Positions 1,446 through 21,500 of a stretch of 64,000 bases of DNA are shown here, piece by piece (the first letter of the stretch is position 1; every line of letters begins with the position of its first letter). The stretch covers positions 1 through 64,000 of the forward strand of contig NZ_FOAP01000029.1 in NCBI RefSeq assembly GCF_900109545.1, given 5' to 3'. This DNA is from Stigmatella aurantiaca. Lineage in GTDB: Bacteria; Myxococcota; Myxococcia; Myxococcales; Myxococcaceae. The notes under the pieces are model-generated. The model saw only the letters and a program-made list of their open reading frames with translations. It did not search any database and had not been told where the DNA came from. Both the position numbers and the translations under genes were made by a program.

Positions 1446-1671
1446 GTGTTACAACCATAGAAATCACAGAAATGTGAGTCCAGCACGCCTCCCGGCTGGG
1501 ATTCAGCGGTTGGCTCGATGAATGGCCTTTCCCCTTCTGAGGGGACACGTGGCCCGTCGGGCGGCCGGGCCCTTCCTGGAATGGCCGTGGCTTCGGTCAT
1601 GGCGAAGGAGACTTATCCTTCTTGGGCAGCAAGACGGCGCCGGCCCCGCTGCAATCGATAAGGAGCGCGTC

Positions 1672-2631
1672 TTGAATAAAATTCCATGTATCGCGATTGT
1701 TTCATGCCTGGTGATTTTTCTCAATGGGGGATGTGGTGGCGTGCAGGAGCCGGCTCCAGAGTCCCCTACGTCGAGCGTGCCTGTTCCCGCCCCTGGGACG
1801 ATACCTGGGGTGTCCGCGCCCGAGGTCGAGACCGCGGAGCCCCCGCCTGCCCCGGCAGAGGAGAAGGACGTCTTCGGCGTAACAATGCTTTACCCCTCCA
1901 AAGAGGGGGGAGAGTCCTGGTTCATGGGGGCGGAGCCCACCAAGGACGCGCGCTTTGATCCCCAGAGCAAGATTACCCTGAACACCGATGGCTCCTGGAA
2001 GATGAAATCCAACCAGGCCCGGATGTCTGTCTTCACCTCCGCGAGCCTCAAGGCCTTCCAGATTCCCACCTACGACCGGCAGGTGCTGGCGGAGCAGGGC
2101 TACATGGAATCGCCCAGCGACTGGAAGAACGTGGAGATGACGGGTTACGTCAAGCTCAACGCGTTCTCGGACGCCACGGACAACTTCGACTGGTACGCCC
2201 GCGGCGGCCGGCACTCGGACTCGGTGCCGTGCGAGGGCTCCTCCTACAAGGGCGCGCTGCACTACGACGGGCGCGTCCGCTGGCAGAAGGAGACATGGCA
2301 CGTCAGCTACGAGCAGGCGCCCTACAGAGACGCGGTGTCCCCGCTCAAGGGCCGCTGGGTGGGCCTGAAGGCCATCCTCCGCAACGTCGAGGTGGAGGGT
2401 GCCCAGGCCGTGCGGCTGGAGCTGTGGGTGGATGACACGGCCGACAAAGTCTCATGGAAGAAGGTCTACGACATGGTGGACGCCGGGGACTGGGGCGGGG
2501 ATGCCTCCGAGTGCGATGGCCTCGAGGACGCCATGCCCATCACCTGGGGCGGCCCCATCGCCGTCTTCCGGTGGGACAACGCCAAGGATGTGGACTTCAA
2601 ATGGATGAGTGTCCGGGAAATCCAGCCTTGA
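1672..2631 (+). CDS. Putative secreted lipoprotein, unassigned beta-rich domain
   Basis: The frame is open from 1522, but the convincing start is the TTG at 1672: AAGGAG lies at 1660-1665 (6-nt spacer), and translation from there gives a short positively charged N-terminus, a hydrophobic core and G-G-C, consistent with a lipoprotein signal (Cys about residue 20, atypical lipobox). A Pro/Glu-rich linker (about residues 25-65) precedes a roughly 250-residue domain rich in Trp, Asp and Gly with alternating beta-strand periodicity, ending in WGGPIAVFRWDN. This looks like a concanavalin-A-like or polysaccharide-lyase-type beta sandwich. I cannot name a family with confidence. Its neighbourhood (chitinase, polysaccharide operon) is consistent with carbohydrate binding. 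The 226 nt upstream (1446-1671) shows no other gene. Confidence 0.65.
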   Translation: MNKIPCIAIVSCLVIFLNGGCGGVQEPAPESPTSSVPVPAPGTIPGVSAPEVETAEPPPAPAEEKDVFGVTMLYPSKEGGESWFMGAEPTKDARFDPQSKITLNTDGSWKMKSNQARMSVFTSASLKAFQIPTYDRQVLAEQGYMESPSDWKNVEMTGYVKLNAFSDATDNFDWYARGGRHSDSVPCEGSSYKGALHYDGRVRWQKETWHVSYEQAPYRDAVSPLKGRWVGLKAILRNVEVEGAQAVRLELWVDDTADKVSWKKVYDMVDAGDWGGDASECDGLEDAMPITWGGPIAVFRWDNAKDVDFKWMSVREIQP

Positions 2632-2791: not shown

Positions 2792-4402
2792 ATGCGGATC
2801 ACGTTTATCGGCCATGCTGGCTTTGTCGTTGAAACGTCCAGCGCCGTGGTGGTGATGGATCCCTGGCTGTCACCCAGGGGCGCATTCGATTCTGCGTGGA
2901 TGCAGTTGCCCAGGAACCATCACCTCGCGCCGCAAGTGCGCGAGCTGCTGGAGTCATCACCCAAGCAGCGGTACCTGTACATCAGCCATGAGCACCAGGA
3001 TCACTTCGATCCCGAGTTCCTCGAGACGTTGACGAAGCGGGACTTCTCGGTGCTCATTCCGAAGTTCCAGCGGTCCGCGCTGCGCGACACGCTCCAGGCG
3101 TACGGCTGCAAGCGGATCATCTCCTGCCGGGACGGGCAGGAGATCCCCGTGCCGGGAGGCGGCTACATCAAGCTGTTCCTCACGGAGTCCGGGACGAACC
3201 GGGACTCGGGGGTGTTGGTGAGGGGAGATGGACAATCCTTTCTCAACCTCAACGACTGCAAGATTCACGACCGGCTGGCGCGAATCGTGGAGTCCGAGGG
3301 CTCCATCGACTTCTTCTCCGCCCAGTTCTCGGGCGCCATCTGGCACCCCACCTGCTACGAGTACTCGCGCGAGGTGTACGAGGAGATCTCGCTCAAGAAG
3401 CGCGCCAGCAAGTTCGAGGCGGTGGCGCGGGCCATCCAGACGGTCAACCCCCGGGCCTTCCTGGCCGCGGCGGGCCCCGCCTGCTTCCTGGACCCCGCGC
3501 TGTTTCACCTGAACCTGGAGAAGGTGAACATCTTCCCCCGGGCCCCCGAGCTGTTCGCCTTCCTGAAGGACCGCTTGCCCCAAGTCTCGACGCGGTACCT
3601 CGAGCCCATGCCCGGCGACGTGCTGGAGGGGACGAGCCTGGAGTGGGTTCACCAGTCGCCCGAGCGCCTCACGGACGAGAACCTGCCGGACTACCTGCAC
3701 GCCTATGCCTCGGACATGGCGCACCTGTTCCGGGAGCGGCGCCGCAACATCCTCCGGGCCGAGGCGGAGGTGATTCACGGGCAGCTGCAGATGGAGCTGC
3801 GGCGCAAGCTGGACCGCCTGGAACTGCACGGACGGGTGGGGATGCCGCTGTACATGGGCCTGAACGAGCTGCCCGGACAATGGCTGCGGGTGGACTTCCG
3901 GCTGCGGCGCGTGGACATTGTTCCGGAAATCAAGGAGCGCAGCCGGTACACGATGAGGGTGGCGGCCCCGGACATCGCGCGTGTGCTGGAGCGCAAGCTG
4001 ACCTGGGAGGAGCTGTTGCTCTCGTTCCGGCACCGGATGAGCCGCACGCCGGATGTCTACGATCCCATCCTCCATGCCTTCCTGGGCCTGGAGATCGAGG
4101 ACGTGGGGGAGTTCTGCCAGGACTTGCTCGCCGCGGAGGCGCGGCGCGAGCGCACCGTGGTGACGGCCGGGGTGAAGCGCTACGCCATCCAGCGGTTCTG
4201 CCCGCACCAGGGCGCGGACCTGACCGAAGCCTGGGTCGAGGGGGGACGGTACCTCCTGTGCCCGCGGCACCGGTGGCAGTTCGATTTGCAGGACGGGGGC
4301 CGGTGCTCGGCCAACGGCCTGTCCATCGAGGCCAAGTGCCTGCCGGACACGGAGCGTGAGCGGCGGCAGCAGCCGGTCCGGGAGGCCCAGACCCAGCTCT
4401 GA
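2792..4402 (+). CDS. Metallo-beta-lactamase-fold hydrolase fused to a C-terminal Rieske [2Fe-2S] domain
   Basis: This 536-residue cytosolic protein starts at the ATG at 2792, which gives the canonical MBL first strand (MRITFIGHAGFVVE); the frame is open 30 nt further upstream without a better ribosome site. The N-terminal half is a UlaG-like metallo-beta-lactamase domain with the metal motif H66-E-H68-Q-D70-H71. The middle (about 200-440) is helical and unassigned. The C-terminus is a Rieske ferredoxin domain with C470-P-H472 and C490-P-R-H493, the Cys/His pairs that hold a [2Fe-2S] cluster. CMP-Neu5Ac hydroxylases combine the same two domains, but in the opposite order as I recall them. A redox-coupled hydrolase or hydroxylase on a sugar-nucleotide-like substrate is therefore possible but unproven. 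It converges on the lipoprotein gene ending at 4450. Confidence 0.8.
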   Translation: MRITFIGHAGFVVETSSAVVVMDPWLSPRGAFDSAWMQLPRNHHLAPQVRELLESSPKQRYLYISHEHQDHFDPEFLETLTKRDFSVLIPKFQRSALRDTLQAYGCKRIISCRDGQEIPVPGGGYIKLFLTESGTNRDSGVLVRGDGQSFLNLNDCKIHDRLARIVESEGSIDFFSAQFSGAIWHPTCYEYSREVYEEISLKKRASKFEAVARAIQTVNPRAFLAAAGPACFLDPALFHLNLEKVNIFPRAPELFAFLKDRLPQVSTRYLEPMPGDVLEGTSLEWVHQSPERLTDENLPDYLHAYASDMAHLFRERRRNILRAEAEVIHGQLQMELRRKLDRLELHGRVGMPLYMGLNELPGQWLRVDFRLRRVDIVPEIKERSRYTMRVAAPDIARVLERKLTWEELLLSFRHRMSRTPDVYDPILHAFLGLEIEDVGEFCQDLLAAEARRERTVVTAGVKRYAIQRFCPHQGADLTEAWVEGGRYLLCPRHRWQFDLQDGGRCSANGLSIEAKCLPDTERERRQQPVREAQTQL

Positions 4403-4449: not shown

Positions 4450-5097
4450 CTAAGGCTGCTGGGTGAGCAACTCCAGCTCGAAGCGGCCGTTGTCCGTCCG
4501 CAGCCCCACGGGCCCCTCGAAGTCGAACGCCTCGGGGGGCAGGGTGCCTTCCCACGCCAGGACGCCATCCACCTGGACGCGCAAGGCCGGGCCCTCCCAT
4601 TCAGCGTAGAGCGTGTGTGAAGCGCCTGGGACGAGCTCGGGCACAGGGACTTCTCTTTGGGCCCGGACCCGCGTGTACCCCCGGTTTCCGCACTCGGCGC
4701 TCGTATGGTTTTTGGGGTTGGACTTCACCGAGACGTGGAGCCCGGCCTTGGGGCCCAGCCGCCACATGACGTAGACCACGTTGCATCCATCCTGGGCCCG
4801 CAGCTTCAGCCCGAGCTGCTGGCGGGACTCGCCGGAGGCGAGCGCTTTCTGCACCCGGGTGGGCCCCAGGTACGTGAAGCGCAGCTCGGCCGCGGTTGCA
4901 TCATCCAAGCCGGGGACCACGGCGCGGACCTTGGACACCTCGACGGCCAGTCTGCCATCGGCCGCCTCGCTCAAGACCCCTTGGGTCACGTGCAACTGAC
5001 GCAGGGCCGTGCGCGTGAGCGGGGGCCTCTCGCGCGTGCATGCAGGGTGCGAAGGGGCGAGCAAGGCGAGCGCCAGGAGCAGCAGGTTTCGTCTCAT
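4450..5097 (-). CDS. Periplasmic lipoprotein, last gene of the exopolysaccharide operon
   Basis: This 215-residue product starts at the ATG at 5097, which overlaps the stop of the preceding gene as ATGA, arguing for translational coupling. Residues 1-20 are a lipoprotein signal (hydrophobic Leu/Ala core, then H-P-A-C). The mature part contains paired beta strands and a C-terminal segment (WEGPALRVQVDGVLAWEG, then GPVGLRTDNGRFE) typical of LamG/concanavalin-A-like jelly-roll folds in carbohydrate-binding proteins. Operon position after a GT2 synthase, an adaptor and an outer-membrane-factor-like gene suggests a periplasmic or outer-membrane partner that binds the nascent glycan. No catalytic motif is evident. 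A longer in-frame extension to 5421 exists but runs antisense-like through the upstream gene and is rejected. Confidence 0.7.
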   Translation of the reverse strand: MRRNLLLLALALLAPSHPACTRERPPLTRTALRQLHVTQGVLSEAADGRLAVEVSKVRAVVPGLDDATAAELRFTYLGPTRVQKALASGESRQQLGLKLRAQDGCNVVYVMWRLGPKAGLHVSVKSNPKNHTSAECGNRGYTRVRAQREVPVPELVPGASHTLYAEWEGPALRVQVDGVLAWEGTLPPEAFDFEGPVGLRTDNGRFELELLTQQP

Positions 5098-6206
5098 GGG
5101 GCGGTGTTTCCGAGCAGGGCCCTGAGGGCCTCCAGGTGGGCCTGCAGCCAGGCCTGCTCGGCGCGCAGCCGCGCCACCTCCAGCACGAGATAGTCGCGGA
5201 AGCGGCGCACTTTCACCGTCTCCAGGGCCTGGACTTCCCGGAGCTGGCCCTCCAGGTCGCTGGTCAGCACGGACACCTCGCGCAGCCGTGTCTCCTCGAG
5301 CCGCTGGGTGGTGCGCAGGTCCTGGAGCATCCGCTCTACCCGCTGGGGAAAGCCTTCCACCTCCTCGGCCGAGGCCTGCTGGCGGGCGCTGCGAGCGCGG
5401 GCGTTGGCCTTGGCTTGCCACCCCCCGCCAAGGTTGTAGGAGACGGTCAGCACCCCGAAAAGGGGCACGTCCTGCCGCACGTCGATCAGCTCGTCGTAGC
5501 CGCCCCGGAGGCGGATGTCCCAGGCCGCGGCCCGGCGCAGCGTGCCGGTGAGCCGCTCGACCTCATCGTCCGCCGCGTGCAGCTCCTGGAGCAGGGCGGG
5601 GAGGGGCTGGCCCGAGGCCGGTGGCAGGTGGGCCAGGCGCTCCTGCTCACGGGCGGTGTCGTGGGCCAGGGCACGGAGTTGTTCCAGCCGGAGCTGCAGC
5701 CCGTTGAGTTCTTCCACGGTGGCCCGTCCCTCGCGGAGATCCGCCCGCAGCGATTCGAGCAGCCGGGCGCCTTCGGGGAGGGCGGCCTCGAGCACCGACA
5801 GGCGCGCCGCCAGGGCGGGGGCGGCGCCGAGGTCCGGCCCGGCCTGGAACACGCGCTGGAGCGCGGAGAAGGCCTTGTAGCGGCGGCACTCGGCCTCCGC
5901 GCGGCGGCGCAGGGTGACGCCCCGGTAGGCGCTCACGACGTTGTAGCCCAGGCCCGCGGTCAGCCGAAGGGTCTGGGTGCCGAGGGGCGTGTCGCCGGAG
6001 GCATCCCCCGCGTTCACCACGCCGGCGCTGCCGAAGATCTCGGGCGCCAGCAGCACCGCGGACTCGGCGGACGCCACGCTTCGCGTGAACTCGCACCAGG
6101 CGGGCGGGCCTGGGGTGCCTTCCGGAACGGAGGGGCTCGGCTGCGCGCTCGCCAGGTGCAGGGCGGCGAAGCAGGGCAGGACCCCCCATGCGATGGCTCT
6201 CTTCAT
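5094..6206 (-). CDS. Outer-membrane-factor (TolC-like) helical protein of the exopolysaccharide operon
   Basis: This roughly 370-residue exported protein has the signal peptide MKRAIAWGVLPC through LASA-Q. The ATG at 6206 was chosen over 6224 because AAGGAGG lies 5 nt upstream. The mature protein is dominated by long amphipathic alpha helices with heptad-like Leu spacing (about residues 95-215 and 265-365), broken by a beta segment with the aromatic/Gly pattern of outer-membrane strands (DVPLFGVLTVSYNLGGGW). This is the layout of TolC/OMF channel proteins, although the sequence is divergent. It lies 17 nt after the adaptor gene and overlaps the lipoprotein gene by 4 nt. A role as the outer-membrane conduit for the polysaccharide made by the GT2 enzyme is inferred from context. 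Confidence 0.65.
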   Translation of the reverse strand: MKRAIAWGVLPCFAALHLASAQPSPSVPEGTPGPPAWCEFTRSVASAESAVLLAPEIFGSAGVVNAGDASGDTPLGTQTLRLTAGLGYNVVSAYRGVTLRRRAEAECRRYKAFSALQRVFQAGPDLGAAPALAARLSVLEAALPEGARLLESLRADLREGRATVEELNGLQLRLEQLRALAHDTAREQERLAHLPPASGQPLPALLQELHAADDEVERLTGTLRRAAAWDIRLRGGYDELIDVRQDVPLFGVLTVSYNLGGGWQAKANARARSARQQASAEEVEGFPQRVERMLQDLRTTQRLEETRLREVSVLTSDLEGQLREVQALETVKVRRFRDYLVLEVARLRAEQAWLQAHLEALRALLGNTAP

Positions 6207-6223
6207 GCCTGCCTCCTTGAGCA

Positions 6224-7318
6224 CTACAGCAGCAGTGGGGGGTGGCCCAGGTGGAGCAGCTCTTCCTGGGCGGAGAGACCATCCTGCAGGTGGACTTCCA
6301 CCATCACCCCGCGCACGAAGTGCTGCCGGATGGGGTGTTTCACCGACACTTCACCTTCCTGGGCCTGGCCGACCACCCCCACCTGATGGCACCACACCAG
6401 CTTCGCCCTGCACGCATAGAGCGGGGTGCCGGGCGGGGACGCATCCAGGTTGTCATAGGGGACGAAGGCCACGGTCAGGTTGCCCTCGAAGGCGCGCAGG
6501 TAGGGGGAGTCGCGGAGAGTCTTGAGCAGCTGGTCATACCGGGCCACGGCTTCATCGAGCCCTTGCAGATCCTCTTTCAGGGCGGAGCGGGTGTTCTCCA
6601 CGCGCGCCTGCTCCAGCAGCGACCGGGTGTACTCGCGCTCCAGCAGCAGGGCCGCGGTGGTCACCTGCGGGCTCCGGGAAGGCCCCCGTGCCTGGACGCT
6701 GTCGAAGCCGAGCAGCTCGCGTTGCAGGCCCTCCAGCCGGTTCTCCAGGTCCACGGCGTGCTCGGCCAGGGTGAGCTGGCTCTGGGCCATCTGCGCGAGC
6801 TGGTGGTTGGAGGTGAGGTAGGCCTCCTGGTCGAGCATGCGGGCGCCGTGAAGGGTCTGGGTCCGGACGCGCGCCATGCCCGAGAAGGCCCGGGCGGATT
6901 CGGAGATCTCTCCCTGGGCGTGTTCATACTGGCGCCGCAGGGTGGAAAACCGCTGGAGGGCCTGAGCACGCGCTGCGCGCTCGCCCTTCAGGGCCTCCTG
7001 GAAGCGCTCCTGAAACGCTTGCTCGGCAAGGAGGGTCCGCTCGGCGTTCGCGAGCCGGGCCTGGACATCGCGCCGGTTCGCCATCAGCTGAGAGCGGGCG
7101 GCGGCCTGCTGGGCGATCTGCGAGTTGAGCTGGAGAATCTCCGGGTCCGTGGGGGCGATGACGGTGGGGACGACCCAGCCCTCGCTGACGAGGAAGAACG
7201 CCTGCATGCCCAGGTACGTGATGAAGCTCAGGAGGATGACCACCAGCAGGCAGGTTCCCAGGGCCTTGTAGGCGCTGACGGCCAGCGCGTTCACTTTGTT
7301 GGCGACCTGCTGGTTCAT
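6224..7318 (-). CDS. Inner-membrane-anchored periplasmic adaptor (HlyD/Alg44-like)
   Basis: This is a 364-residue protein. Residues about 20-45 form a single transmembrane anchor, followed by a short beta segment (WVVPTVIAPTDPEIL), a long coiled-coil hairpin (about residues 60-270, rich in Gln, Glu, Leu, Arg and Ala), and a C-terminal beta domain (about 280-350: LTVAFVPYDN, then LYACRAKLVWCHQVG). This matches membrane-fusion/adaptor proteins that bridge inner-membrane machines and outer-membrane channels. Its start codon overlaps the stop of the GT2 synthase gene as ATGA. Alginate systems likewise pair a GT2 synthase (Alg8) with an HlyD-like partner (Alg44). No PilZ c-di-GMP site (RxxxR...D/NxSxxG) is visible at the N-terminus, unlike Alg44. 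Confidence 0.7.
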   Translation of the reverse strand: MNQQVANKVNALAVSAYKALGTCLLVVILLSFITYLGMQAFFLVSEGWVVPTVIAPTDPEILQLNSQIAQQAAARSQLMANRRDVQARLANAERTLLAEQAFQERFQEALKGERAARAQALQRFSTLRRQYEHAQGEISESARAFSGMARVRTQTLHGARMLDQEAYLTSNHQLAQMAQSQLTLAEHAVDLENRLEGLQRELLGFDSVQARGPSRSPQVTTAALLLEREYTRSLLEQARVENTRSALKEDLQGLDEAVARYDQLLKTLRDSPYLRAFEGNLTVAFVPYDNLDASPPGTPLYACRAKLVWCHQVGVVGQAQEGEVSVKHPIRQHFVRGVMVEVHLQDGLSAQEELLHLGHPPLLL

Positions 7319-8559
7319 GAGAGGCCCCCTGCGGTCTGAGTGGGCAGCAGGGCGGTATCAGGCGGTGCCGGTGTGTCCGCGTTCGCGGACGGCGCGCCCC
7401 GCGTTTCCCAACTGCCCGAATCCAGCGTCAACAGCGCCAGTGGCGTGAAGAGGGCGTAGGTGACGGGCATCAACAGGGCCATGGGCAGGAAGCTCAGGCC
7501 CGGGACGCGCCGGTCCTCCGGCAGGTGGCGCGTCTCCCAGCGGTAGATGAAGCCCATGAGCCCCACCACGAGCACGTGTATGGCCAGGATGTCCCAGAAC
7601 TCCCCGGTCAACACGTTGTGGACGATGACGACGGGGTAGGCGAGCAACAGCCCGAGCTGCGAGACATAGTGGACCGCCACCACGGGGTGCAGCCGCCAGG
7701 CGTGGCTGAGCCCGCCCAGCATGTCCACCAGGTTGGAGCGGCGCCAGCGCAGCTGCTGCGCGAAGTACCCCGGCAGGTGGGTGGGGGCGGCGGTGAAGCA
7801 GACCGCGTCCGTGGTGTAGAGGGTCTCATAGCCCGCCTTGATGATCTGCCGGGTGAGGAAGCGGTCCTCGCCGTACTTGATGGCGACCCCGGCGATGGCC
7901 CGCGCCTCCAGGATGGGCTCGAGCTCCTCCAGCACATGGCGGCGATACGCCGTCAGACACCCGGACAGACACATCACCGAGCGGAATCCCCGCTCCAGAT
8001 CCTTGAGCCACTCCTGGGCGAAGTGAAACTTGATCTCGACCATCCGCGTGAGCCAGGTCTGGTGGCGGTTCGTCACATAGGTTCTCCCGCCCACCGCGGC
8101 GATCCGGGGGTGGAGAAACCGCCGGACGAGCTGCCGCACGGCGCCCCGGTCCACGATGACGTCCGAGTCCACCGAGACGACGACCTCCGAGCAGGTGGCG
8201 CGCACCCCCCGGTTGATGCCCTTGCGCTTGCCCATGTTCTCCGGGTTGCGCATCACCAGGACATTGGGGTGGTTCTCGGCGGCCTTCAGGGCCCAGGCAT
8301 GGCTGTCGTCCTTGGAGCAGTCATCGACCACGACAATCGACAGCTTGTCAGGGGGGTAGTCCTGTAACAGCAGGCTGTGGATGGCGTGGTAGATGCCTTC
8401 GCCTTCATTGAAGAGGGGAATAATGATGGCCACCGTGGGCTCGTAGTCATCATTCGTTGCATCGAACTGATCACCCCGGACCCGCCGCATCAAGGGACCC
8501 AGGATGTACCGGTTCATCAACACCACGAGGAACAGGATTTGAATGGGAAATAGCTCCAT
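7315..8559 (-). CDS. Processive family-2 glycosyltransferase (cellulose/hyaluronan synthase-like, CslA-like)
   Basis: This 414-residue membrane enzyme starts at the ATG at 8559 with AGGAG 5 nt upstream; GTG codons lie just before. It has an N-terminal membrane helix (about 5-24), a GT-A catalytic domain and three or more C-terminal membrane helices (about 290-380). The processive GT2 signature is complete: D79-D80, D131-S-D133, E231-D232 and Q268-Q-L-R-W272. It should polymerise a beta-linked glycan from a UDP-sugar while threading it through the membrane. It leads the operon with the adaptor, outer-membrane and lipoprotein genes. It is divergently arranged with a copper radical oxidase, as CslA is paired with GlxA in Streptomyces. 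Which sugar is used cannot be told from the sequence. Confidence 0.85.
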   Translation of the reverse strand: MELFPIQILFLVVLMNRYILGPLMRRVRGDQFDATNDDYEPTVAIIIPLFNEGEGIYHAIHSLLLQDYPPDKLSIVVVDDCSKDDSHAWALKAAENHPNVLVMRNPENMGKRKGINRGVRATCSEVVVSVDSDVIVDRGAVRQLVRRFLHPRIAAVGGRTYVTNRHQTWLTRMVEIKFHFAQEWLKDLERGFRSVMCLSGCLTAYRRHVLEELEPILEARAIAGVAIKYGEDRFLTRQIIKAGYETLYTTDAVCFTAAPTHLPGYFAQQLRWRRSNLVDMLGGLSHAWRLHPVVAVHYVSQLGLLLAYPVVIVHNVLTGEFWDILAIHVLVVGLMGFIYRWETRHLPEDRRVPGLSFLPMALLMPVTYALFTPLALLTLDSGSWETRGAPSANADTPAPPDTALLPTQTAGGLS

Positions 8560-8792
8560 CACCACTCCTGGAAGGGAAGGGAGCAGGCTGTCCCCAGGTT
8601 GCTAACCGCGCAAAACCTTGAACTCCAGAGGCCCAAGGGCAACCTGGCTGGAAGGGCGTGGGTGTGCTTGTCATTGAACGCTTCGGAGCGCGGCCTGGTG
8701 TCCTCTTCTTCGCAAGGCCAGGCACCCCAGGGAGGGTTGGCAGGGGAGCCCAGGCACTTAGGTTACGGCCCTGGGATATAAGGGAGAGCCCC
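8560..8792. promoter_or_regulatory. Divergent intergenic region between GT2 operon and copper oxidase
   Basis: This 233-nt gap contains no credible gene. A 9-bp inverted repeat, CCAGGTTGC (8594-8602) and GCAACCTGG (8639-8647), with a 36-nt spacer lies near the GT2 side. It may be a shared regulatory element for the two divergent units. I see no strong -35/-10 pair on either strand. Confidence 0.35.
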
Positions 8793-11024
8793 ATGGGAGT
8801 AATGGGCGTCAGGGCTGGATGGGTTGGGCTGTGGTTGGGATTGCAAGGCGGCCTCGCGGTGGCTCAACCCGCCGCTGAAGCCGGGCGGTGGTCACCGCTG
8901 ATGTCATGGCCCATCTCCGCCACACATACGCACCTGCTGCCCAGTGGCAAGGTGATGTTCTTCGGGGAGTTCGACGAGGGCAAACTATCCCCCCGGTTGT
9001 GGGATCCCGTGGCCAACACGCTCACGCCGCTTCCCGTGCCTCCGTTCAATATCTTCTGCGCGGGGCACTCCTTCCTCGAAGATGGCAGGCTGCTCATCAC
9101 GGGCGGGCACGTGGACAGCCACAACGGCTTGCCCCATGCCATCCTCTTCAATCCGAAGACGAATGGTTGGGACGCCGTGCCCGACATGAACGACAAGCGC
9201 TGGTACCCGAACAACACCACCCTGGCCAATGGCGAGGTCCTGGTGCTCTCCGGGGAGACGAACGGGGAGGGCTTGTTCAACGAGCTGCCCCAGCGCTACG
9301 TGCCTGGGTCCAACACCTGGGTGAACCTGTCCACGGCCCAGAGGAAGATTCCGTATTACCCTCACATGTTCCTGGCCCCCAACAACAAGCTCTTCTTCGC
9401 GGGGCCCTGGCGCTCCAGCCAGTGGCTGGACCCGGAGGGAACCGGCACCTGGTTCGAGGCGCCGTACAGCCAATTTGGCGGCAGATCCTACGGGGGAAGC
9501 GTCTACTTTGACGGAAAGGTGCTCTCCACGGGTGGCGGAAATCCTCCCACGAAAACCGTGGAGCTGATTGATCTCAACCTGCCATCGCCCAGCTGGAGCT
9601 ACCAGAGCCCCATGAGCATCGCCCGGCGGCAGCACAACACGATGTTCTTGCCGGACGGCAAGGTCCTCGTGACGGGCGGAAGCAGTCTGGAAGGGTTCAA
9701 CAACCCCGACGGCGCCGTCCGTCATGCCGAGGTGTGGGATCCGGAGACCAATGTCTGGAAGACCTTGGCCAGCAACAACGCCTTTCGCGGATACCATTCG
9801 ACCACGCTGCTGTTGCCGGATGGGCGGGTGCTGAGCGCGGGAGGCCGCAATGTGCGCACCGCGGAAGTCTTCGAGCCTCCCTACCTCTTCCTGGGGCCGC
9901 GCCCCACCCTCACCGCGGCACCGGATGAGCTCACGCCGGGAACGTCCTTTGACGTCGGCACGCCCAACGCGGGCCAGATCAAGAAGGTCACGCTGATTGC
10001 GTTGGGCTCCGTGACGCACGCCTTCGATTCGAACCTGCGCTTTCTCACGCTGCCGCACACCGTGACCCCGGCAGGCCTCACCGTCACCGCGCCCGAGAGC
10101 AACGTGATAGCCCCCCCGGGGCCCTACATGTTGTTTTTGATCAGCCAGGAGGGCGTCCCCTCGGTGGCGAAGGGGGTGATGGTCAAGAAGGTGGCGCCGA
10201 AGTTCTCCCGTACCCTCGCCTTCAGCGATGTGTGGAAGTACGACGACACCAACGTGGACCGGGGCACGGCCTGGCTCTCGGCCAGCTACGACGATTCGCA
10301 GTGGAAGTCCGGGCCCGGACAGCTGGGCTTTGGGGATGGAGACGAGGGGACGGTGCTCACCGCCACGGTGCCGTCGCAACCCTCCGTCTACTTTCGAAAG
10401 AAGTTCTCGCTGGCCAAACCCGTCTCGGCGGCCATGCTGGAGGTGCTCTTCGACGATGGCATCCAGGTGTGGGTCAACGAGGTGCCCGTCTTCTCCCGGA
10501 ACATGGCCAAGGGGCTCAACTTCGAGGCCTTTGCCTCGGGCTCGACGAACAACCAATACATCCGGGAGAAGCTGGCGCTCTCTGGTTCGCCCTTCCGGGT
10601 GGGGGAGAACCTCATCACGGTGATGGTGAAGCAGGTGGGAAGCAACTCGACCGACCTGACCTTCGCGCTGGGGCTGGAGGTGGAGAGCACCCCGGCGCCT
10701 GTCGAGGACGTGCTCCAGGTGCTGTCTCCGAACGGAGGAGAGTCCTGGGTGGGAGGAAGCCGGGTCAGCATCCGCTGGGTGCTCAAGAGCCCCTTGCCCG
10801 CGGTGGACCTCGCGTTCTCCTCGGATGGAGGGACCGTCTGGGTGCCCATCGCCTTCGAACTGCCGGCAAGCCAGGGCAGCTATCCCTGGCGGGTGCCGAA
10901 CATCGCCTCGTCCCGGATGCTGGTGCGCGTGTCGAAGGCCGGGGGAGGGGATTCGGACGTGAGCGATGCCGTGTTCTCGATCGTGCGCACGCAGCTCCAG
11001 GAGCACCCGCGAGAGGCTCCGTGA
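8793..11024 (+). CDS. Copper radical oxidase (galactose-oxidase/GlxA-like) with C-terminal beta-sandwich domains
   Basis: This 743-residue secreted protein has a signal peptide ending ...LAVA-Q. The start at 8793 has AGGGAG 6 nt upstream; the frame is open to 8658 without support. Residues about 35-340 form kelch-repeat blades (LPDGKVLVTGG-type repeats) and about 345-450 the DUF1929-like cap. The copper and cofactor residues are all present: C89 (thioether partner, in FCAGHS), Y138 (RWYPNN), Y334-H335 (YHS) and H409 (THA). This predicts a Tyr-Cys radical/Cu enzyme oxidising a primary alcohol or aldehyde, releasing H2O2. About 465-625 is a galactose-binding-like sandwich, and about 630-735 an Ig/Fn3-like domain (LSPNGGESW). 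The divergent GT2 synthase suggests that glycan modification during export is its job. Confidence 0.85.
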   Translation: MGVMGVRAGWVGLWLGLQGGLAVAQPAAEAGRWSPLMSWPISATHTHLLPSGKVMFFGEFDEGKLSPRLWDPVANTLTPLPVPPFNIFCAGHSFLEDGRLLITGGHVDSHNGLPHAILFNPKTNGWDAVPDMNDKRWYPNNTTLANGEVLVLSGETNGEGLFNELPQRYVPGSNTWVNLSTAQRKIPYYPHMFLAPNNKLFFAGPWRSSQWLDPEGTGTWFEAPYSQFGGRSYGGSVYFDGKVLSTGGGNPPTKTVELIDLNLPSPSWSYQSPMSIARRQHNTMFLPDGKVLVTGGSSLEGFNNPDGAVRHAEVWDPETNVWKTLASNNAFRGYHSTTLLLPDGRVLSAGGRNVRTAEVFEPPYLFLGPRPTLTAAPDELTPGTSFDVGTPNAGQIKKVTLIALGSVTHAFDSNLRFLTLPHTVTPAGLTVTAPESNVIAPPGPYMLFLISQEGVPSVAKGVMVKKVAPKFSRTLAFSDVWKYDDTNVDRGTAWLSASYDDSQWKSGPGQLGFGDGDEGTVLTATVPSQPSVYFRKKFSLAKPVSAAMLEVLFDDGIQVWVNEVPVFSRNMAKGLNFEAFASGSTNNQYIREKLALSGSPFRVGENLITVMVKQVGSNSTDLTFALGLEVESTPAPVEDVLQVLSPNGGESWVGGSRVSIRWVLKSPLPAVDLAFSSDGGTVWVPIAFELPASQGSYPWRVPNIASSRMLVRVSKAGGGDSDVSDAVFSIVRTQLQEHPREAP

Positions 11025-11058: not shown

Positions 11059-11892
11059 ATGCCGACGTCCGCCCCCACGCCGCCGTTGTTGACGCTGCCA
11101 CCCGATGAGGTCCACGTCTGGATCGTTGAGCCCGAGCGCATCACCGATGCCGGATTGCTGGCGTCCTACCGGGCCTTGCTGGATGCGCCGGAGCGCGAGA
11201 AGCAGCAGCGGTTCCACTTCGAGAGGCACCGGTTGCAGTACCTGGTCTCCCACGCGCTCGTGCGCCTCACCTTGTCGCGCTATGCCCCGGTGGCCCCAGG
11301 GGCCTGGTCCTTCGTCGCCAACACGTATGGACGGCCGGAGATCCGCGGCGAGGAGAAGCCGTGGCTGCGCTTCAACCTCTCCCACACGGACGGAATGGCC
11401 CTCTGCGCGGTGGCCCGCGACGTGGATGTGGGCGCGGATGTGGAGGATGCCGAGCGGAAGGGAGAGACGGTGGGGATCGCGGACAGCTTCTTCGCCCCTG
11501 CGGAGGTGGCCGCGCTTCGAGCGCTTCCGGAGCATGCGCAGCGCGAGCGCTTCTTCGACTACTGGACCTTGAAAGAGGCCTACATCAAGGCCCGGGGCAT
11601 GGGGCTCTCCCTGCCGCTGGAGCAGTTCGCCTTCGAGCTTCCGGCGGGGCTTCCCGCCCGGATCTCGTTTGATCCTCGCCTGGTGGATGAGCCCTCTCAC
11701 TGGCAGTTCGTACGGTTCCGGCCTTCCACGCGGCACGCCGCGGCCCTGGCCGTGCGCCGTCCAGTGGGAGCCCCTCTCTCAGTGCGGTTCCAGCGAACCG
11801 TTCCCCTCCAGGGGGATGGCCCCGTGGAGTACCTCACCCAGGAGACGCGCCAACCGCTGCGCCTTCAGATGGCTGGGGCAGGGGAGAGCTGA
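11059..11892 (+). CDS. mtaA: Sfp-type 4'-phosphopantetheinyl transferase MtaA
   Basis: This 277-residue cytosolic enzyme converts apo carrier domains of the PKS/NRPS to their holo form using CoA. The family motifs are present: G125-A-D-V-E129 (the magnesium-binding GxDxE signature) and W169-T-L-K-E-A-Y-I-K177, with the N-terminal CoA-binding segment about residues 50-110 (RPEI, FNLSHTDG). Sfp-type length fits. The chosen ATG at 11059 follows AAGGG at 11050-11054; upstream in-frame codons overlap the copper oxidase. It lies 34 nt after that oxidase gene, so the two may share a transcript. The symbol follows the published myxothiazol cluster, where MtaA is the broad-range PPTase. Here it is separated from mtaB by 6.6 kb containing a tRNA and six opposite-strand genes. 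Confidence 0.85.
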   Translation: MPTSAPTPPLLTLPPDEVHVWIVEPERITDAGLLASYRALLDAPEREKQQRFHFERHRLQYLVSHALVRLTLSRYAPVAPGAWSFVANTYGRPEIRGEEKPWLRFNLSHTDGMALCAVARDVDVGADVEDAERKGETVGIADSFFAPAEVAALRALPEHAQRERFFDYWTLKEAYIKARGMGLSLPLEQFAFELPAGLPARISFDPRLVDEPSHWQFVRFRPSTRHAAALAVRRPVGAPLSVRFQRTVPLQGDGPVEYLTQETRQPLRLQMAGAGES

Positions 11893-12821: not shown

Positions 12822-14051
12822 TCAGTCCCTCCGGTCCGAAAGCAGCGCGCCCAACGTCCGCCGAGCATGCGCGAGGTGCGGCGCCGCCCGCTGGGGGGGC
12901 AGCTCGTCCAGGCGCACCACGCCCGCGTCGAGGAACCCCTCCCCACCGAGTCCCCGTCCACAGGCGGTGGGCACCGCGCGCAAATCCACCGGCTGGAGCA
13001 CACCCCGCGCGTCCCGGGCGAGCGCGAGCTTCAGCACGGCCCCCGTCTGGCACGCCAGCGTGGGCATGATGCTCAGGAAGTTGCCCAGCGAGTACGCGAT
13101 GAGCCCCATCCGCGCGGGCCCGCCCCGGCGTACCTGCGTGGGGCATGTGGCGTCCGCGCCGTCGATGGACACCCACTCCACCGGCTGGAGGACATGCGGC
13201 GAGGAGCCCAGGAGGAGGTCCGCCCCGCGCTCGATGAGCCGGTAGGCGTGCTCGCGCTGGAGGGCCTCGGGCCAGTACTCGTACTCGAAGCCCCAGTGCG
13301 GCATCAGCACCACCAGGTCCGGCCCCACCGCGCGAGCGGCGTCGATGAGCGCGCCCAGCCGCTCCCAGTCCGGCGCGTGGAGGGGGCTGCCCAGCCGCGT
13401 CACCGGCACCCCGGCAGGCGGCGCCCCCACGAGGTGGTTGATGTCATACGTCACGGCGGCGATGCCCATCCGCACCCCGTCCACCTCCAGGGCGGCCACC
13501 GCGTCCTCCGGCCGGGGGCCTCCCACGCAGCGGTGCTGGGAGGAGGCCAGCACCGTCCTCCGGGTCCGCTCCAGCCCTTCGGCGTCCTGGTCAAGCGCGT
13601 GGTTGTTGCAGAGGGAGAAGACGCGGTGGCGCGCCGTGCCCTCCCAGGCCGCGAGGTAGTCCGGCGGGGCGTTGTAGTGGAGCGTCTCGTAGACGAGCCG
13701 GGGCACGGGCCGCGCCGGGTCCACTGGCGTCTCCAGGTTGGCGAAGGCCACCGCGTCTCCCGCCATCACCTCCCGGACGCCGGGAGAGAGGGCGCGGTGG
13801 AAGCCGCTGCGAATCCACATCATGTCGCCCACGGCGCTCAGCCGGAGCTCCGGCGCGCCCGCGTGCCGCCAGCTCCCCGAGGCGAGGTGCCGGGCGACGC
13901 GCGCGAAGTGCTCCCCGGTTTCGGCCGAGCGCGGCTCCGGCAGGTGCAGGAGGCTCTTGGTGATGTAGCGCAGGTTGAGGTCCCACCGGGACAGCGGCCA
14001 GCGGCCGTCCTCGTAGCGGATGTCCGCGTACAGCCGGCGCAGGGCGTTCAT
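12822..14051 (-). CDS. CapA-family (PGA_cap) metallophosphatase-like protein
   Basis: This 409-residue protein has a start at 14051 overlapping the desaturase stop as ATGA. After about 75 N-terminal residues, the CapA/PGA_cap pattern appears in order: SAVGDMMW (metal Asp), FANLETPV (N-x-E-T), C-N-N-H-A-L-D-Q-D with G-x-x-x-T, VLMPHWGFEYE (H-W-G), and G-A-D-L-L-L-G-S-S-P-H-V-L-Q. This calcineurin-like metal core is found in poly-gamma-glutamate synthesis protein CapA, where its exact chemistry is unsettled. Most CapA proteins are membrane-anchored or exported, but I see no signal peptide or membrane helix here, so it probably acts in the cytosol. Within this operon it could process or ligate a polar headgroup; that is inference only. 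Confidence 0.8.
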   Translation of the reverse strand: MNALRRLYADIRYEDGRWPLSRWDLNLRYITKSLLHLPEPRSAETGEHFARVARHLASGSWRHAGAPELRLSAVGDMMWIRSGFHRALSPGVREVMAGDAVAFANLETPVDPARPVPRLVYETLHYNAPPDYLAAWEGTARHRVFSLCNNHALDQDAEGLERTRRTVLASSQHRCVGGPRPEDAVAALEVDGVRMGIAAVTYDINHLVGAPPAGVPVTRLGSPLHAPDWERLGALIDAARAVGPDLVVLMPHWGFEYEYWPEALQREHAYRLIERGADLLLGSSPHVLQPVEWVSIDGADATCPTQVRRGGPARMGLIAYSLGNFLSIMPTLACQTGAVLKLALARDARGVLQPVDLRAVPTACGRGLGGEGFLDAGVVRLDELPPQRAAPHLAHARRTLGALLSDRRD

Positions 14052-15028
14052 GGGCGCTTTCGTTCCAGGGTGACGAGTCGCACATCCTCCTCCACCACCC
14101 TGGGGCCGGCCAGGAGGGCCCGCCACATGACGTGGAGGTAGCTGTCGAAGACGGGGGCCTCGCGCGCGAGCAGCTCGGGGCGCAGGCGCGCGTGCAGCCG
14201 CGCGAGGTTGTAGCCGGGCACCCGCGGGTAGAGGTGGTGGTCCAGGTGGTGGTTGAGGCCGTTCCACAGGAAGGTGACGAGCCGGGTGCTGCGCACCGTC
14301 GTCGCGGTGTGGAAGCGGTCGCCGCGCCAGACGTTGGCGTGGTGGTCGGAGATGGACTTGAGCCCGTTGAGGGGGCTGGCGAAGAGCACCGGCAGCAGCC
14401 AGCACTCCACCGCGCCCCCGAGGAGCCCGTGGCCCGCCAGGAGCCAGAAGAGCAGCGCGTAGAAGGCCCCGTAGCCGAGCAGCACCAGCGCATGGCGGCG
14501 CAGGCGGGCGGCGTCGAAGTGCTGCACCGGGTAGAGGACGTTGAAGTAGACGAGGCTGAGCGGCAGGCCCAGCAGCACGGTGGCGTAGAAGAGTGCCCAC
14601 AGCCCGGGCGAGCGGCGGCCCGCGTTGTAGGCGTCAGGGTCCTTCTCGGTGCGGTTCCAGCGGTGGTGCGCGAGGTGGCCGTGCCGCATCGGCTCGTAGG
14701 CGATGCCCACGAGCAGGCTGAGCCCGTTGCCGAAGAGGCGGTTCTGCCAGGGCCTCGGGAAGAGCGTGTCGTGCCACGCGTCGTGGTCGAGCTGGATAAG
14801 CCCCATGACGCCCTGGGCCGCCAGCAGCCACAGGGGCAGCTTCAGCCAGAAGCCGCTGACGTGCGCGAGCCCCACGCCGGCCAGCCCCCACACGCCCAGG
14901 TGGAGGGCCGCCATGCCCAGAGCCCGCGCGGGGCGGATGCGCAGCAGCTCCACCAGCTCGTCGCGGGAGGGGCCCGGCCCGGCGGGGGCAGCGGGTGAAG
15001 CGGAGACGGGGGCGAGGGCGGGCTGCAT
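14048..15028 (-). CDS. Membrane fatty-acid desaturase
   Basis: This 326-residue integral membrane diiron enzyme carries all three His boxes: H82-D-A-W-H86, H118-L-A-H121-H122 (followed by RW), and HHLDHH near residue 270. Four or more hydrophobic segments surround them (about 38-58, 62-80, 145-165, 180-205). Members introduce double bonds or hydroxyls into acyl chains (acyl-lipid, acyl-CoA or acyl-ACP) using O2 and an electron donor. No cytochrome-b5 or ferredoxin domain is fused. It follows the ICMT-like gene by 6 nt and overlaps the CapA-like gene by 4 nt, so it is part of one transcription unit. The N-terminal 25 residues are Ala/Pro rich and probably disordered. Substrate is unknown; the context suggests tailoring of a specialised lipid. 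Confidence 0.88.
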   Translation of the reverse strand: MQPALAPVSASPAAPAGPGPSRDELVELLRIRPARALGMAALHLGVWGLAGVGLAHVSGFWLKLPLWLLAAQGVMGLIQLDHDAWHDTLFPRPWQNRLFGNGLSLLVGIAYEPMRHGHLAHHRWNRTEKDPDAYNAGRRSPGLWALFYATVLLGLPLSLVYFNVLYPVQHFDAARLRRHALVLLGYGAFYALLFWLLAGHGLLGGAVECWLLPVLFASPLNGLKSISDHHANVWRGDRFHTATTVRSTRLVTFLWNGLNHHLDHHLYPRVPGYNLARLHARLRPELLAREAPVFDSYLHVMWRALLAGPRVVEEDVRLVTLERKRP

Positions 15029-18508: not shown

Positions 18509-21500
18509 ATGTCGATAGAGCAAGGTGAAGGTGCTGGCAAGGTTGTCCGAAGTATCCCTCAACTTCGGGAATGGCTGGTCCAGCAGGTGGCGTCCCAGGT
18601 CGGGATCGAGGCGCGCGCGGTAGGGACGGCCGAGCCTTTCTTCGCCCTAGGCATGGGTTCTGTCTTCGCCACGAAGCTGATCGCCGAGCTCGCACGCTGG
18701 CTCGATCGGCCCCTCTCTCCCACGCTGGTGTGGGAGCACCCCACCATCGACAAGCTCGCCCGCCATCTCTCGGGTGCGGACGCGCCGAAGGTGGACCTCC
18801 AGGCTCAGAAACTGGAAGCGGGCGTAGACGAAGCTGAGCCGATCGCGATCGTGGGTCTGGCCTGCCGTTTCCCCAACGCCCCCGACGCGGGGGCTTTCTG
18901 GCGGGTGCTTCAGGAAGGCCGCGATTGTGTCACCGAGGTTCCGGGTGATCGCTGGGATGCCAGCCTTTATTATGATCCGGAGCCAGGCACTCCCGGGAAG
19001 ATCGTCACGCGCTATGGCGCGTTCCTCGACTCCGTCGATCGCTTTGATCCCACCTTCTTCGGAATTTCTCCCCGGGAAGCGGGGCAGCTGGATCCACAGC
19101 AGCGCTTGATGCTGGAGCTGTCCTGGGAGGCCCTGGAGGACGCTGGCATCGCTCCGCAGCGGCTGCGTGGATCCCGGACCGGCGTGTTCACCGGCATGGT
19201 CTGGCGCGACTACGCCGACCTGCAGACGATCCACAATGCGGCGCCGACGCTGCATACCTGTACCGGCCACGCGGGTGGCATCCTCGCCAACCGGATCTCC
19301 TATGCCCTCGGTCTGGAAGGGCCGAGCCTGGCGATCGACACGGCCTGCTCCTCCTCGCTCGTGGCCATTCACGAGGCCTGCCGCAGCCTGCGCTCTGGGG
19401 AGTCGGCCATTGCCCTTGCGGGCGGTGTCCAGCTCAACCTGTCGCCCCGGACCTTCATGGCGGTGTCGGCCTTCGGGGCCCTGGCGCCCGATGGGCGATG
19501 CAGAACGTTCGATGCACGGGCCAGTGGGTACGTGCGCGGTGAAGGCGGCGGCGTGCTCGTGCTCAAGCCGCTGTCCCGGGCGCTCGCCGATGGCGACACC
19601 CTCTACTGCGTGATTCGCGGCAGCGCGGTGAACAACGACGGCGCGAGCAACGGCCTCACGGCCCCGAACCCGAAGGCCCAGGAGCGGCTCCTGCGTGACG
19701 CCTATGCGGCCGCGGGCATTGATCCGGCCCAGGTTCAGTACGTCGAACTGCACGGCACGGGAACGCCTCTGGGCGATCCGATCGAGGCCGGAGCGCTGGG
19801 TACGGTCCTGGGCTCGGCGCGGGAGGTGGAACGTCCCCTCCATGTCGGCTCGGTGAAGACCAACATCGGGCATCTCGAGGCCGCCGCGGGGATTGCTGGC
19901 GTCATCAAGGTGGCGCTGTCGATCCGGCACCAGCAGCTTCCCGCGAGCCTGCACTTCGAGCAGCCCAACCCGCGCATCGCATTCGATGACCTGCGGCTGC
20001 GCGTCCAGACTCAGCTTGGCTCCTGGCCTGTCGCGGACGCGCCCGCGGTCGCTGGCATCAGCGCCTTCGGCTTTGGTGGGACGAACTGTCACATCGTCGT
20101 CGAAGAGCACCGTGCTGGGCGCCGTCCGTCCACCGTGCCGGTGAGCCCGCCCCAGACGCAACCGGCGGCGGCCCCGAAGACCGCATTCCTCTTCGCGGGG
20201 GCTGGGTCGTCCTGGTGGGGAATGGGGCGGGAGCTTCTGGGGACCGAGCCGGTCTTCCGGTCTCGCTTCGAGGAGTGTGATGCGGCATTCCGGCCCCTGG
20301 GGGGCTGGTCCCTGGTCGAGACGCTCTTGTCTTCCCAGGCGCGTTCACGCTTTGGGAAGGGGGAGATCCAGCTGCCCCTCGTTCTGGCGTTCCAGATCTC
20401 CCTCGCGGCCTTGTGGCGCTCCTGGGGCATCGAGCCGTCCGCGACCCTGGGCTACAGCGTGGGAGAGTGGTCCGCGGCGCAGGTAGCGGGAATCCTCACC
20501 ATCGAGGAGGTCTTCGCGCTCGCCCACCACTACATCCAGGTGCAGAAGGGTGTGGCCGGTGGGGTGGGCATGGCCGTGGTGGGCCTGTCTGGCGCCGAGG
20601 CGGCGGAGCGCATCGCTCCCTATGGCGGACGGATCTCCATTGCCTCCGAGAATGGCCCTCACTCCACGGGGCTGGGGGGCGAGGCGGCGGCACTCCGGGA
20701 CTTCACGGCGAGCATGACGGCGGAGGGAGTCTTCGCGCGTCTGGTGGAGATCGACTTCTACGCCCACATTCCGGAAGTCGAGCCGCTCAAGCAGCTCTTC
20801 CTTCAGACTTGCCCGGCGCTGCGTCCGTTGCCAGGCCGGATCCCCATGGTGTCGACGGTCTCGGGCACCTTCGTCGAGGGGAACACCCTCGGTCCGGCGT
20901 ACTGGGCGGACAACTTCCGCGAGCCCGTGCGCTTCGCCTCCGCCGTGAAGACGCTGCTGGACAGCGGGCACGATGTCTTCCTGGACGTCAATCCCCATCC
21001 CATTCACGAGCACTCGGTCCTGGAGAACTTCCGGGCTGGCACCACACGCGCCGCGTTCATCGCCAGCATGCGCCGTGGAGAGCCCAGCCTGCAGGGGCTT
21101 CACCGGGCGCTGACCCAGCTCTCCGATTCTGGAAGCCCGGTCCGTTGGGATCGAATCCTGCCGGGGATGGCCACGGGAGCGTCCTCCCCCGCCAAGGCTG
21201 AACTGTTCGTCGCTTCGGCGAGGACGGAGCAGGCACTCCGGGAGCACGCGGAGCGCATTGCCGGGCAGCTTCGCCGCGATGCTTCCGCCTCGCTCACGGA
21301 TCTCTGTTACACGGCGGGGGTCCGCCGCAGCCACCACGAGCACCGGCTCGCGCTGGTCGCGGAGACGCGCGCCGCGCTGGAAGAGGGGCTGTCTGCCTTC
21401 GCCCGTGGGGAGATCCGGCAGAACCCGTCTCAAGGGGTGGTCCGCGCCAGTGAAGCGCCCCGGATCGGCTTCGTGTTCTCCGGTCAGGGCTCCTTCCCGC

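What the first reader, a model, noticed from the sequence alone, without database searches (positions are those of the whole stretch)
7315..11024. CslA-GlxA-like pair in a Gram-negative predator, wired to an envelope-spanning exporter
A processive GT2 synthase with all catalytic motifs is divergent from a copper radical oxidase with all five cofactor residues (C89, Y138, Y334, H335, H409). In Streptomyces the adjacent cslA and glxA make and oxidatively modify a glycan at hyphal tips. Here the synthase operon adds an HlyD-like adaptor, a TolC-like protein and a lipoprotein, the parts needed to cross a second membrane. A glycan oxidised during or after export would be new for myxobacteria as far as I know.
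Basis: partly seen in the sequence, partly recalled or inferred. Interest (0 to 1): 0.75.

Follow-up and report, generated by a model that had tools for sequence, protein, structure and literature searches.

The report
Fruiting-body glycan synthase–oxidase locus with exporter
This stretch is the counterpart of a gene pair already reported to be needed for fruiting-body formation in Stigmatella aurantiaca (fbfA, a sugar-chain synthase, and fbfB, a copper oxidase); what looks new is that the synthase belongs to an operon encoding what appears to be a channel across both membranes, which recurs widely in myxobacteria.

Summary
It is not new for myxobacteria. It matches the published Stigmatella aurantiaca genes fbfA/fbfB, both reported necessary for fruiting, and a 2013 paper already related fbfB and its divergent glycosyltransferase neighbour to Streptomyces GlxA. 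"CslA-like" fails for the GT2: it scores nearer NodC than cellulose synthase, forms its own clade and lacks CslA features. The oxidase is optional: a listed match lies beside the GT2 in 18 of 60 genomes. The constant partner is the exporter: 59 of those 60 genomes encode the adaptor. The outer-membrane component has a TolC-type fold; the adaptor assignment is weaker; "lipoprotein" is unproven. The module also occurs in Myxococcus xanthus, where a 2020 survey reported no synthase-dependent pathway, in Sorangium, and partly on a Paraburkholderia plasmid. Best reading: a synthase-adaptor-TolC glycan secretion system with an optional secreted oxidase that modifies the glycan or matrix. Glycan and oxidase substrate are unknown.

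The parts
7315..8565 (-). FbfA-type processive GT2 synthase, 416 aa (likely start ATG at 8559)
   Evidence: Motifs DD, DSD, GED, QQLRW; Pfam GT2 and Chitin_synth_2; clade separate from NodC and PgaC
8793..11024 (+). FbfB/GlxA-type copper radical oxidase; propeller plus E-set to about residue 510 of the 788-aa ORF, then a domain at about 515-680 (beta-sandwich by guess, no family above cut-off) and an Ig-like domain at about 690-776 (weak); N-terminus looks like a signal peptide (read by eye)
8566..8792 (.). Divergent intergenic region between the two genes, largely conserved in four genomes of the genus (mean column identity 80%)
6224..7318 (-). Membrane-anchored coiled-coil protein, probable periplasmic adaptor; C303 and C310 invariant in 47 sequences
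   Evidence: AlphaFold2 pLDDT 93.9; Foldseek top hit EmrA E 9.8e-5; alignment
5094..6224 (-). TolC/OMF-type outer-membrane channel protein; C44 and C113 invariant in 41 sequences
   Evidence: AlphaFold2 pLDDT 90.7; 38 PDB hits with E <= 0.001, outer-membrane channel proteins; alignment
4450..5097 (-). Small secreted-looking protein of the operon (faint laminin-G-like signal in 2 of 34 members); lipoprotein status unproven
2792..4402 (+). Metallo-beta-lactamase-fold plus Rieske fusion, conserved neighbour converging on the operon; HEHQDH and CPH..CPRH motifs intact (start estimated)
1522..2631 (+). Putative secreted protein of unknown family, conserved neighbour
11059..11892 (+). 4'-phosphopantetheinyl transferase; outer flank used to judge presence or absence of the oxidase (start estimated; ORF listed from 10966)

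Best explanation
This is the fbfA-fbfB locus of a Stigmatella-type myxobacterium. FbfA is an inner-membrane processive GT2 that polymerises a beta-linked glycan, perhaps an N-acetylhexosamine polymer given its NodC/chitin-synthase affinity, and extrudes it into the periplasm. The membrane-anchored adaptor connects it to the TolC-type channel, giving a synthase-adaptor-OMF conduit through both membranes. FbfB is secreted separately and oxidises primary alcohols of that glycan or of the surrounding matrix to aldehydes, which could stiffen or cross-link fruiting-body material. Shown here: gene identities, cofactor residues, operon structure, conservation, OMF fold of the predicted model. From the literature: both genes are needed for fruiting in S. 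aurantiaca. Inferred: that fbfA is the gene beside fbfB, adaptor function, glycan export, glycan identity, and that FbfB acts on FbfA's product.
For: GT2 and oxidase assignments. Overlapping gene ends. Exporter tied to the GT2: GT2 match of 500 bits or more in 60 of 145 genomes, adaptor match in 59 of these 60; of 79 loci from another collection, 68 have the adaptor near the GT2, 52 adaptor and OMF, 48 also the small secreted protein (many contigs end nearby). OMF fold; adaptor topology with EmrA as best match. The 18 oxidase rows beside a GT2 all keep C, Y, Y, H, H, as do 52 of all 55 oxidases aligned. 17 of those 18 rows lie in one group of 21 (support 82/81). Genus mate G078 (oxidase 81%, GT2 90% identical) has a contig of 10,260,756 bases, the size I recall for S. 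aurantiaca DW4/3-1. Literature.
Against: Nothing tested shows export of a glycan or that FbfB acts on it. No listed oxidase match lies beside the GT2 in 41 of 60 genomes, and one is uncertain. The adaptor family shows no HlyD-type Pfam family among the 25 listed, its EmrA match has TM-scores under 0.3, and VIA-align mostly returned unrelated helical proteins. The OMF matches have TM-scores of 0.46 or less and P0004 itself is below the OEP cut-off (12.9 against 22 bits). In some loci with 6 kb visible on both sides the adaptor (3 of 39) or the OMF (10 of 39, these 3 included) was not found. The two fbf papers could not be opened. I recall, unverified, a smaller FbfB mass in the 1998 abstract than this ORF gives.
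Confidence: 0.6

Rival explanations
1. The oxidase does not modify the FbfA glycan. It acts on other alcohols or makes hydrogen peroxide in the matrix, and its position reflects shared developmental control from a divergent promoter.
For: A listed oxidase match lies beside the GT2 in only 18 of 60 genomes, and the gene is missing between GT2 and transferase in 18 of 28 loci. Related unlinked oxidases exist. The divergent region is conserved in the genus.
Against: The adjacency is found in two families (L196) and adjacent oxidases cluster in the tree.
Confidence: 0.25
2. The GT2-adaptor-OMF set makes and exports a short chito-oligosaccharide-like signal rather than a structural polymer.
For: Best NCBIfam match is NodC (178 bits). 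TolC-type channels usually pass small molecules or proteins (established knowledge).
Against: NodC score far below its cut-off of 550; separate clade; no NodB-type deacetylase recognised among the ten window proteins scanned (not every ORF was scanned).
Confidence: 0.15
3. It is a true CslA-GlxA-type complex in which the oxidase is a subunit of a cellulose synthase.
For: Homologous oxidase; both systems linked to morphogenesis; [quoted passage not shown]
Against: GT2 has GED not TED, no FXVTXK loop, 416 aa; CelA model 34.7 bits against NodC 178; oxidase lacks the stretch between residues 108 and 232 of chain 4unm in the PDB alignment; divergent genes; most GT2-bearing genomes show no adjacent oxidase.
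Confidence: 0.08
4. The two genes are unrelated neighbours.
For: Divergent orientation and variable presence.
Against: Same divergent arrangement in 18 genomes over two families; both genes named in fruiting.
Confidence: 0.02

Closest known systems
fbfA/fbfB of Stigmatella aurantiaca (Silakowski 1996, 1998, titles only; Liman 2013 PMC3543389)
   Same: Chitin-synthase-like GT2 gene, and a galactose-oxidase gene that is a GlxA ortholog beside a divergent glycosyltransferase gene; same-genus genome G078 has the same layout
   Different: Nothing in the passages read mentions the adaptor-OMF operon; the original papers were not available
Streptomyces CslA-GlxA (PMC11022532)
   Same: GT2 beside a copper radical oxidase; role in morphogenesis
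   Different: CslA is a cellulose synthase relative, coupled with glxA; here the GT2 is NodC/chitin-synthase-like and divergent, with an adaptor and OMF
Proposed cyanobacterial XcsA-XcsB-TolC system (PMC12430437)
   Same: GT2 synthase, HlyD-like adaptor, TolC-type channel
   Different: There a cellulose synthase with PilZ, not encoded in one operon with TolC, and unproven; here GT2, adaptor and OMF genes form one operon and the GT2 is of another type
Rhizobial BgsBA mixed-linkage glucan system (PMC9495663)
   Same: GT2 preceded by a HlyD-domain protein
   Different: Two-gene operon with a c-di-GMP-binding, cellulose-synthase-like GT2
NodC
   Same: GT2 similarity (about 33% identity)
   Different: Separate clade, below the NodC cut-off

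Membership tests
FbfA/FbfB pair | GT2 homologous to chitin synthases | tested here: met
   PF03142 62.8 bits, cut-off 27; the 1996 title calls FbfA homologous to chitin synthases
FbfA/FbfB pair | Galactose-oxidase gene next to a divergent glycosyltransferase gene | tested here: met
   description
FbfA/FbfB pair | Orthologous to the S. aurantiaca genes themselves | tested here: inconclusive
FbfA/FbfB pair | Needed for fruiting bodies | not testable with these tools
   Literature only
Copper radical oxidase (AA5/GlxA-like) | Cys-Tyr cross-link pair, axial Tyr and two His | tested here: met
   C134, Y183, Y379, H380, H454 of the ORF; aligned; roles of the residues recalled
Copper radical oxidase (AA5/GlxA-like) | Oxidase activity | not testable with these tools
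   No assay
GlxA proper (NF052501) | Score over the curated cut-off of 800 bits | tested here: not met
   234.9 bits
CslA-GlxA complex | Cellulose-synthase-type GT2 with TED and FXVTXK | tested here: not met
   GED, no FXVTXK; motifs of CslA; no CslA sequence was obtained for the tree
CslA-GlxA complex | Coupled, co-directional genes | tested here: not met
   Divergent
CslA-GlxA complex | Oxidase binds the synthase | not testable with these tools
   No interaction data
NodC | TIGR04242 cut-off 550 bits | tested here: not met
   178.4 bits
NodC | Groups with NodC in a tree | tested here: not met
   4 NodC rows form a separate clade (quick tree with long-branch warnings)
Synthase-dependent polysaccharide secretion | Processive GT2 motifs | tested here: met
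Synthase-dependent polysaccharide secretion | Outer-membrane beta-barrel protein as described for the classical systems | tested here: not met
   TolC-type fold instead; definition from PMC7484181
Synthase-dependent polysaccharide secretion | Secreted polymer | not testable with these tools
   No assay
Outer-membrane factor (TolC) | OMF fold | tested here: met
   38 PDB hits with E <= 0.001, outer-membrane channels by title except six rows titled only 'membrane protein from Pseudomonas aeruginosa' and one titled by efflux function, taken as such from recall; TM-scores 0.29-0.46
Outer-membrane factor (TolC) | Pfam OEP over cut-off | tested here: not met
   12.9 against 22 bits for P0004; 16 of 41 family members match at E <= 0.1, best 5.8e-8
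Periplasmic adaptor (HlyD/EmrA) | Adaptor fold | tested here: inconclusive
   EmrA best at E 9.8e-5 but TM-scores below 0.3; VIA-align list dominated by other helical proteins, with one MacAB-TolC chain at rank 48
Bacterial lipoprotein (4450-5097) | Canonical lipobox | tested here: inconclusive
   Non-canonical in window; crude pattern in 24 of 51

The most novel reading that the evidence does not exclude
Myxobacteria carry a previously unrecognised synthase-dependent glycan secretion system that uses an operon-encoded TolC-type channel instead of a porin. It is present even in Myxococcus xanthus, where no such pathway was found, and in some lineages a dedicated secreted copper radical oxidase oxidises its product to build fruiting-body matrix.
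Probability: 0.4. Interest if true: 0.7.

Novelty: new variant of a known kind. Interest (0 to 1): 0.45.

Why it matters
The pair itself is old knowledge (fbfA/fbfB), but the passages I could read leave its mechanism open. Tying FbfA to a conserved adaptor and TolC-type channel turns two fruiting mutants into a testable glycan export pathway. It also gives an operon-encoded case for the synthase-adaptor-TolC model, which in cyanobacteria is a proposal without experimental proof. The M. xanthus copy conflicts with a published survey that found no synthase-dependent pathway there, so the test can be done in a standard laboratory species. Natural presence and absence of the oxidase offers a ready comparison for what oxidation contributes.

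Tried and rejected
Rejected: novelty of the pair. Rejected: GT2 as CslA-like. Rejected: foreign origin of the pair from base composition; GC of the GT2 (0.651) and oxidase (0.645) is below the window's 0.687, but third-position GC (0.887, 0.856) is within the range of the ten genes tabulated (0.781-0.910), so the low-GC argument made for fbfB in 2013 is not supported here. Looked for remnants of the oxidase in 20 loci without it: no hit better than E 1.6.

Led nowhere: profile searches of the PDB for the adaptor, OMF, 1522-2631 and 4450-5097 families gave no match with E below 0.02. VIA-align on the adaptor listed mostly PI3K regulatory-subunit, SMC and chemoreceptor chains; one MacAB-TolC chain stood at rank 48. 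No Streptomyces CslA sequence was obtained: the oxidase regions of Streptomyces, Pseudonocardia and Embleya plasmids held no match to the GT2 profile at E 0.01, and three Streptomyces plasmid GT2 regions showed no oxidase gene of this kind in their annotation; those GT2s are in the tree, CslA is not. Paper searches for M. xanthus with NodC and for GT2, HlyD, TolC and polysaccharide secretion found 0 papers. The original fbfA and fbfB papers are not held; I saw their titles in reference lists and statements about fbfB in Liman 2013.

Rows dropped: the oxidase alignment of 55 leaves out repeats of loci fetched twice (L038-L067), identical domains and matches under 380 residues, among them the window genome's own shortened copy; the Embleya sequence is also not among the 55. 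The GT2 tree used a chosen part of the loci. Match tables are limited in length, so adjacency counts rest on the listed matches.
Full report
1. What is there. The GT2 gene is at 7315-8565 (-) and has the expected catalytic motifs. All five cofactor residues are present. The GT2 is followed by three genes whose ends overlap: 6224-7318, 5094-6224 and 4450-5097. Converging on them are a metallo-beta-lactamase/Rieske fusion and a further secreted-looking protein. Beyond the oxidase lies a phosphopantetheinyl transferase.

2. It is the fbfA/fbfB locus. Liman and colleagues (PMC3543389; passages and section 5 read) state that S. aurantiaca fbfB (STAUR_4011) is the glxA ortholog, lies next to a divergently transcribed glycosyltransferase gene, and that its mutation abolished fruiting-body formation. 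The title of the 1996 fbfA paper says fruiting depends on fbfA, homologous to chitin synthases (seen in reference lists). That fbfA is the gene next to fbfB is my inference. A genome of the same genus code, G078, has the same arrangement with 90% (GT2) and 81% (oxidase) identity; its contig has 10,260,756 bases, which I recall as the size of S. aurantiaca DW4/3-1, and a review lists that genome at 10.3 Mb in one contig (PMC8538405, passages). The window therefore probably comes from a Stigmatella relative.

3. Conservation in the order. Of 145 genomes, 60 have a GT2 match of 500 bits or more; 23 more have only weaker matches. A listed oxidase match is divergent within 434 bp of the GT2 match in 18 of the 60. 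In one more, G121, the GT2 ends at a contig end and the oxidase lies near another contig's end, followed by the flanking transferase gene. The adaptor is found in 59 of the 60, the exception being G092; it also occurs in G072, and weakly in G049, without a strong GT2 match. A profile search of 195 genomes of the phylum again found the adaptor in 61. Three genomes of the window's own genus code (G080-G082) have neither GT2 nor adaptor match at the limits used. In 28 loci where GT2 and transferase gene are both visible, the oxidase lies between them in 10 and is missing in 18. In 7 of those 18 the two matches are only 210-357 bp apart; in the other 11 the distance is 965-9373 bp with no oxidase match. 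No remnant was detected in 20 loci without the oxidase.

4. Wider module. Of 79 loci found with the GT2 in named records, 68 have the adaptor nearby, 52 adaptor and OMF, 48 also the small secreted protein, 5 the oxidase; of the 39 with at least 6 kb on both sides the figures are 36, 29, 26 and 4. They include Myxococcus xanthus AM003 (L112), Corallococcus, Archangium, Sorangium (L134) and Labilithrix (L137). In a number of uncultured members the exporter genes are divergent from the GT2, or only a shorter adaptor-like gene is seen. A Paraburkholderia plasmid carries adaptor, OMF and GT2 in one stretch (L191), and a contig labelled Hyphomicrobiales likewise (L181).

5. Trees. Oxidases (55 rows, careful tree): 17 of the 18 GT2-adjacent rows, the contig-end row and three unlinked duplicates from the same genus group together, with modest support (82/81). 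The adjacent row from the second family (L196) branches outside that group and outside a group of 12 unlinked, mostly shorter oxidases. The label 'adjacent' needs 4 changes on the tree, against 15.3 when shuffled, so one origin of the pairing is not shown. GT2 (60 rows, quick tree): the window's GT2 falls in a clade of 36 rows, the FbfA-like loci and the two non-myxobacterial ones (99*), apart from NodC, PgaC, 12 other myxobacterial GT2s, a Paenibacillus GT2, three Streptomyces plasmid GT2s and, by a long branch, BcsA and a pSymB GT2. Against the FbfA profile NodC scores 195-199 bits, other myxobacterial GT2s 174-212, the Paenibacillus GT2 248, PgaC 98-110, BcsA 40. Long branches and the missing CslA limit this.

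6. Exporter. The adaptor model (pLDDT 93.9) has a membrane helix, long helices and a C-terminal beta domain; EmrA is the best PDB match (E 9.8e-5), but TM-scores are low and a second aligner was not informative. The OMF model (pLDDT 90.7) has 38 PDB hits with E at or below 0.001, outer-membrane channel proteins by title or, for a few vaguely titled rows, by recall; TM-scores are 0.46 or less.

7. Relation to what is known. A 2020 study reported no synthase-dependent pathway in M. xanthus (PMC7484181, passages). The locus in M. xanthus AM003 would be a candidate, missed perhaps because its parts are distant from those used as queries there. A review describes a proposed but unproven cyanobacterial XcsA-XcsB-TolC route (PMC12430437, passages), and a rhizobial BgsB homologue has a HlyD-like domain (PMC9495663, passages). 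In the listings and passages of searches I saw no paper linking fbfA to this exporter, but the library lacks the original papers and most subscription journals.

8. Verdict. The pair is already known; the specific CslA comparison fails for the synthase; the oxidase comparison holds at family level, below the curated GlxA cut-off. The exporter and its distribution are the part worth follow-up.

Noticed in passing
L199, L222, L223 (unlinked second oxidase copies in three genomes of the same genus): All three have Gly in place of the cross-linking Cys, so they probably cannot form the cofactor; the window's own genome has a shortened copy of this second gene (G000 C4:40797-41972, 429-aa frame).
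   Followed up: partly
window 2792-4402: Metallo-beta-lactamase-fold and Rieske fusion with intact metal motifs; best PDB match is a non-heme diiron monooxygenase (E 4.7e-7). A conserved neighbour that might hydroxylate a sugar or its donor (speculation).
   Followed up: partly
window 1522-2631: Secreted-looking protein family; of four members scanned against Pfam only one gave a hit, insignificant (E 0.39). Conserved beside the module; a divergent relative sits beside the GT2 operon in L180.
   Followed up: partly
L197 6017-13830: In G043 two GT2 copies are separated by about 5 kb; the adaptor is beside one and the oxidase beside the other.
   Followed up: no
L210-L219: Shorter oxidases without the C-terminal domains form, with the longer one in L220, a separate unlinked clade of 12 rows.
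   Followed up: partly
L113: A record titled Comamonas sp. KCTC 72670 carries a Myxococcus-like copy of the locus and is probably mislabelled.
   Followed up: no
window 12822-14600 and 18509-30523: A PGA_cap-domain gene and a 4004-aa open frame (not analysed, possibly a large biosynthetic synthase) beyond the phosphopantetheinyl transferase.
   Followed up: no
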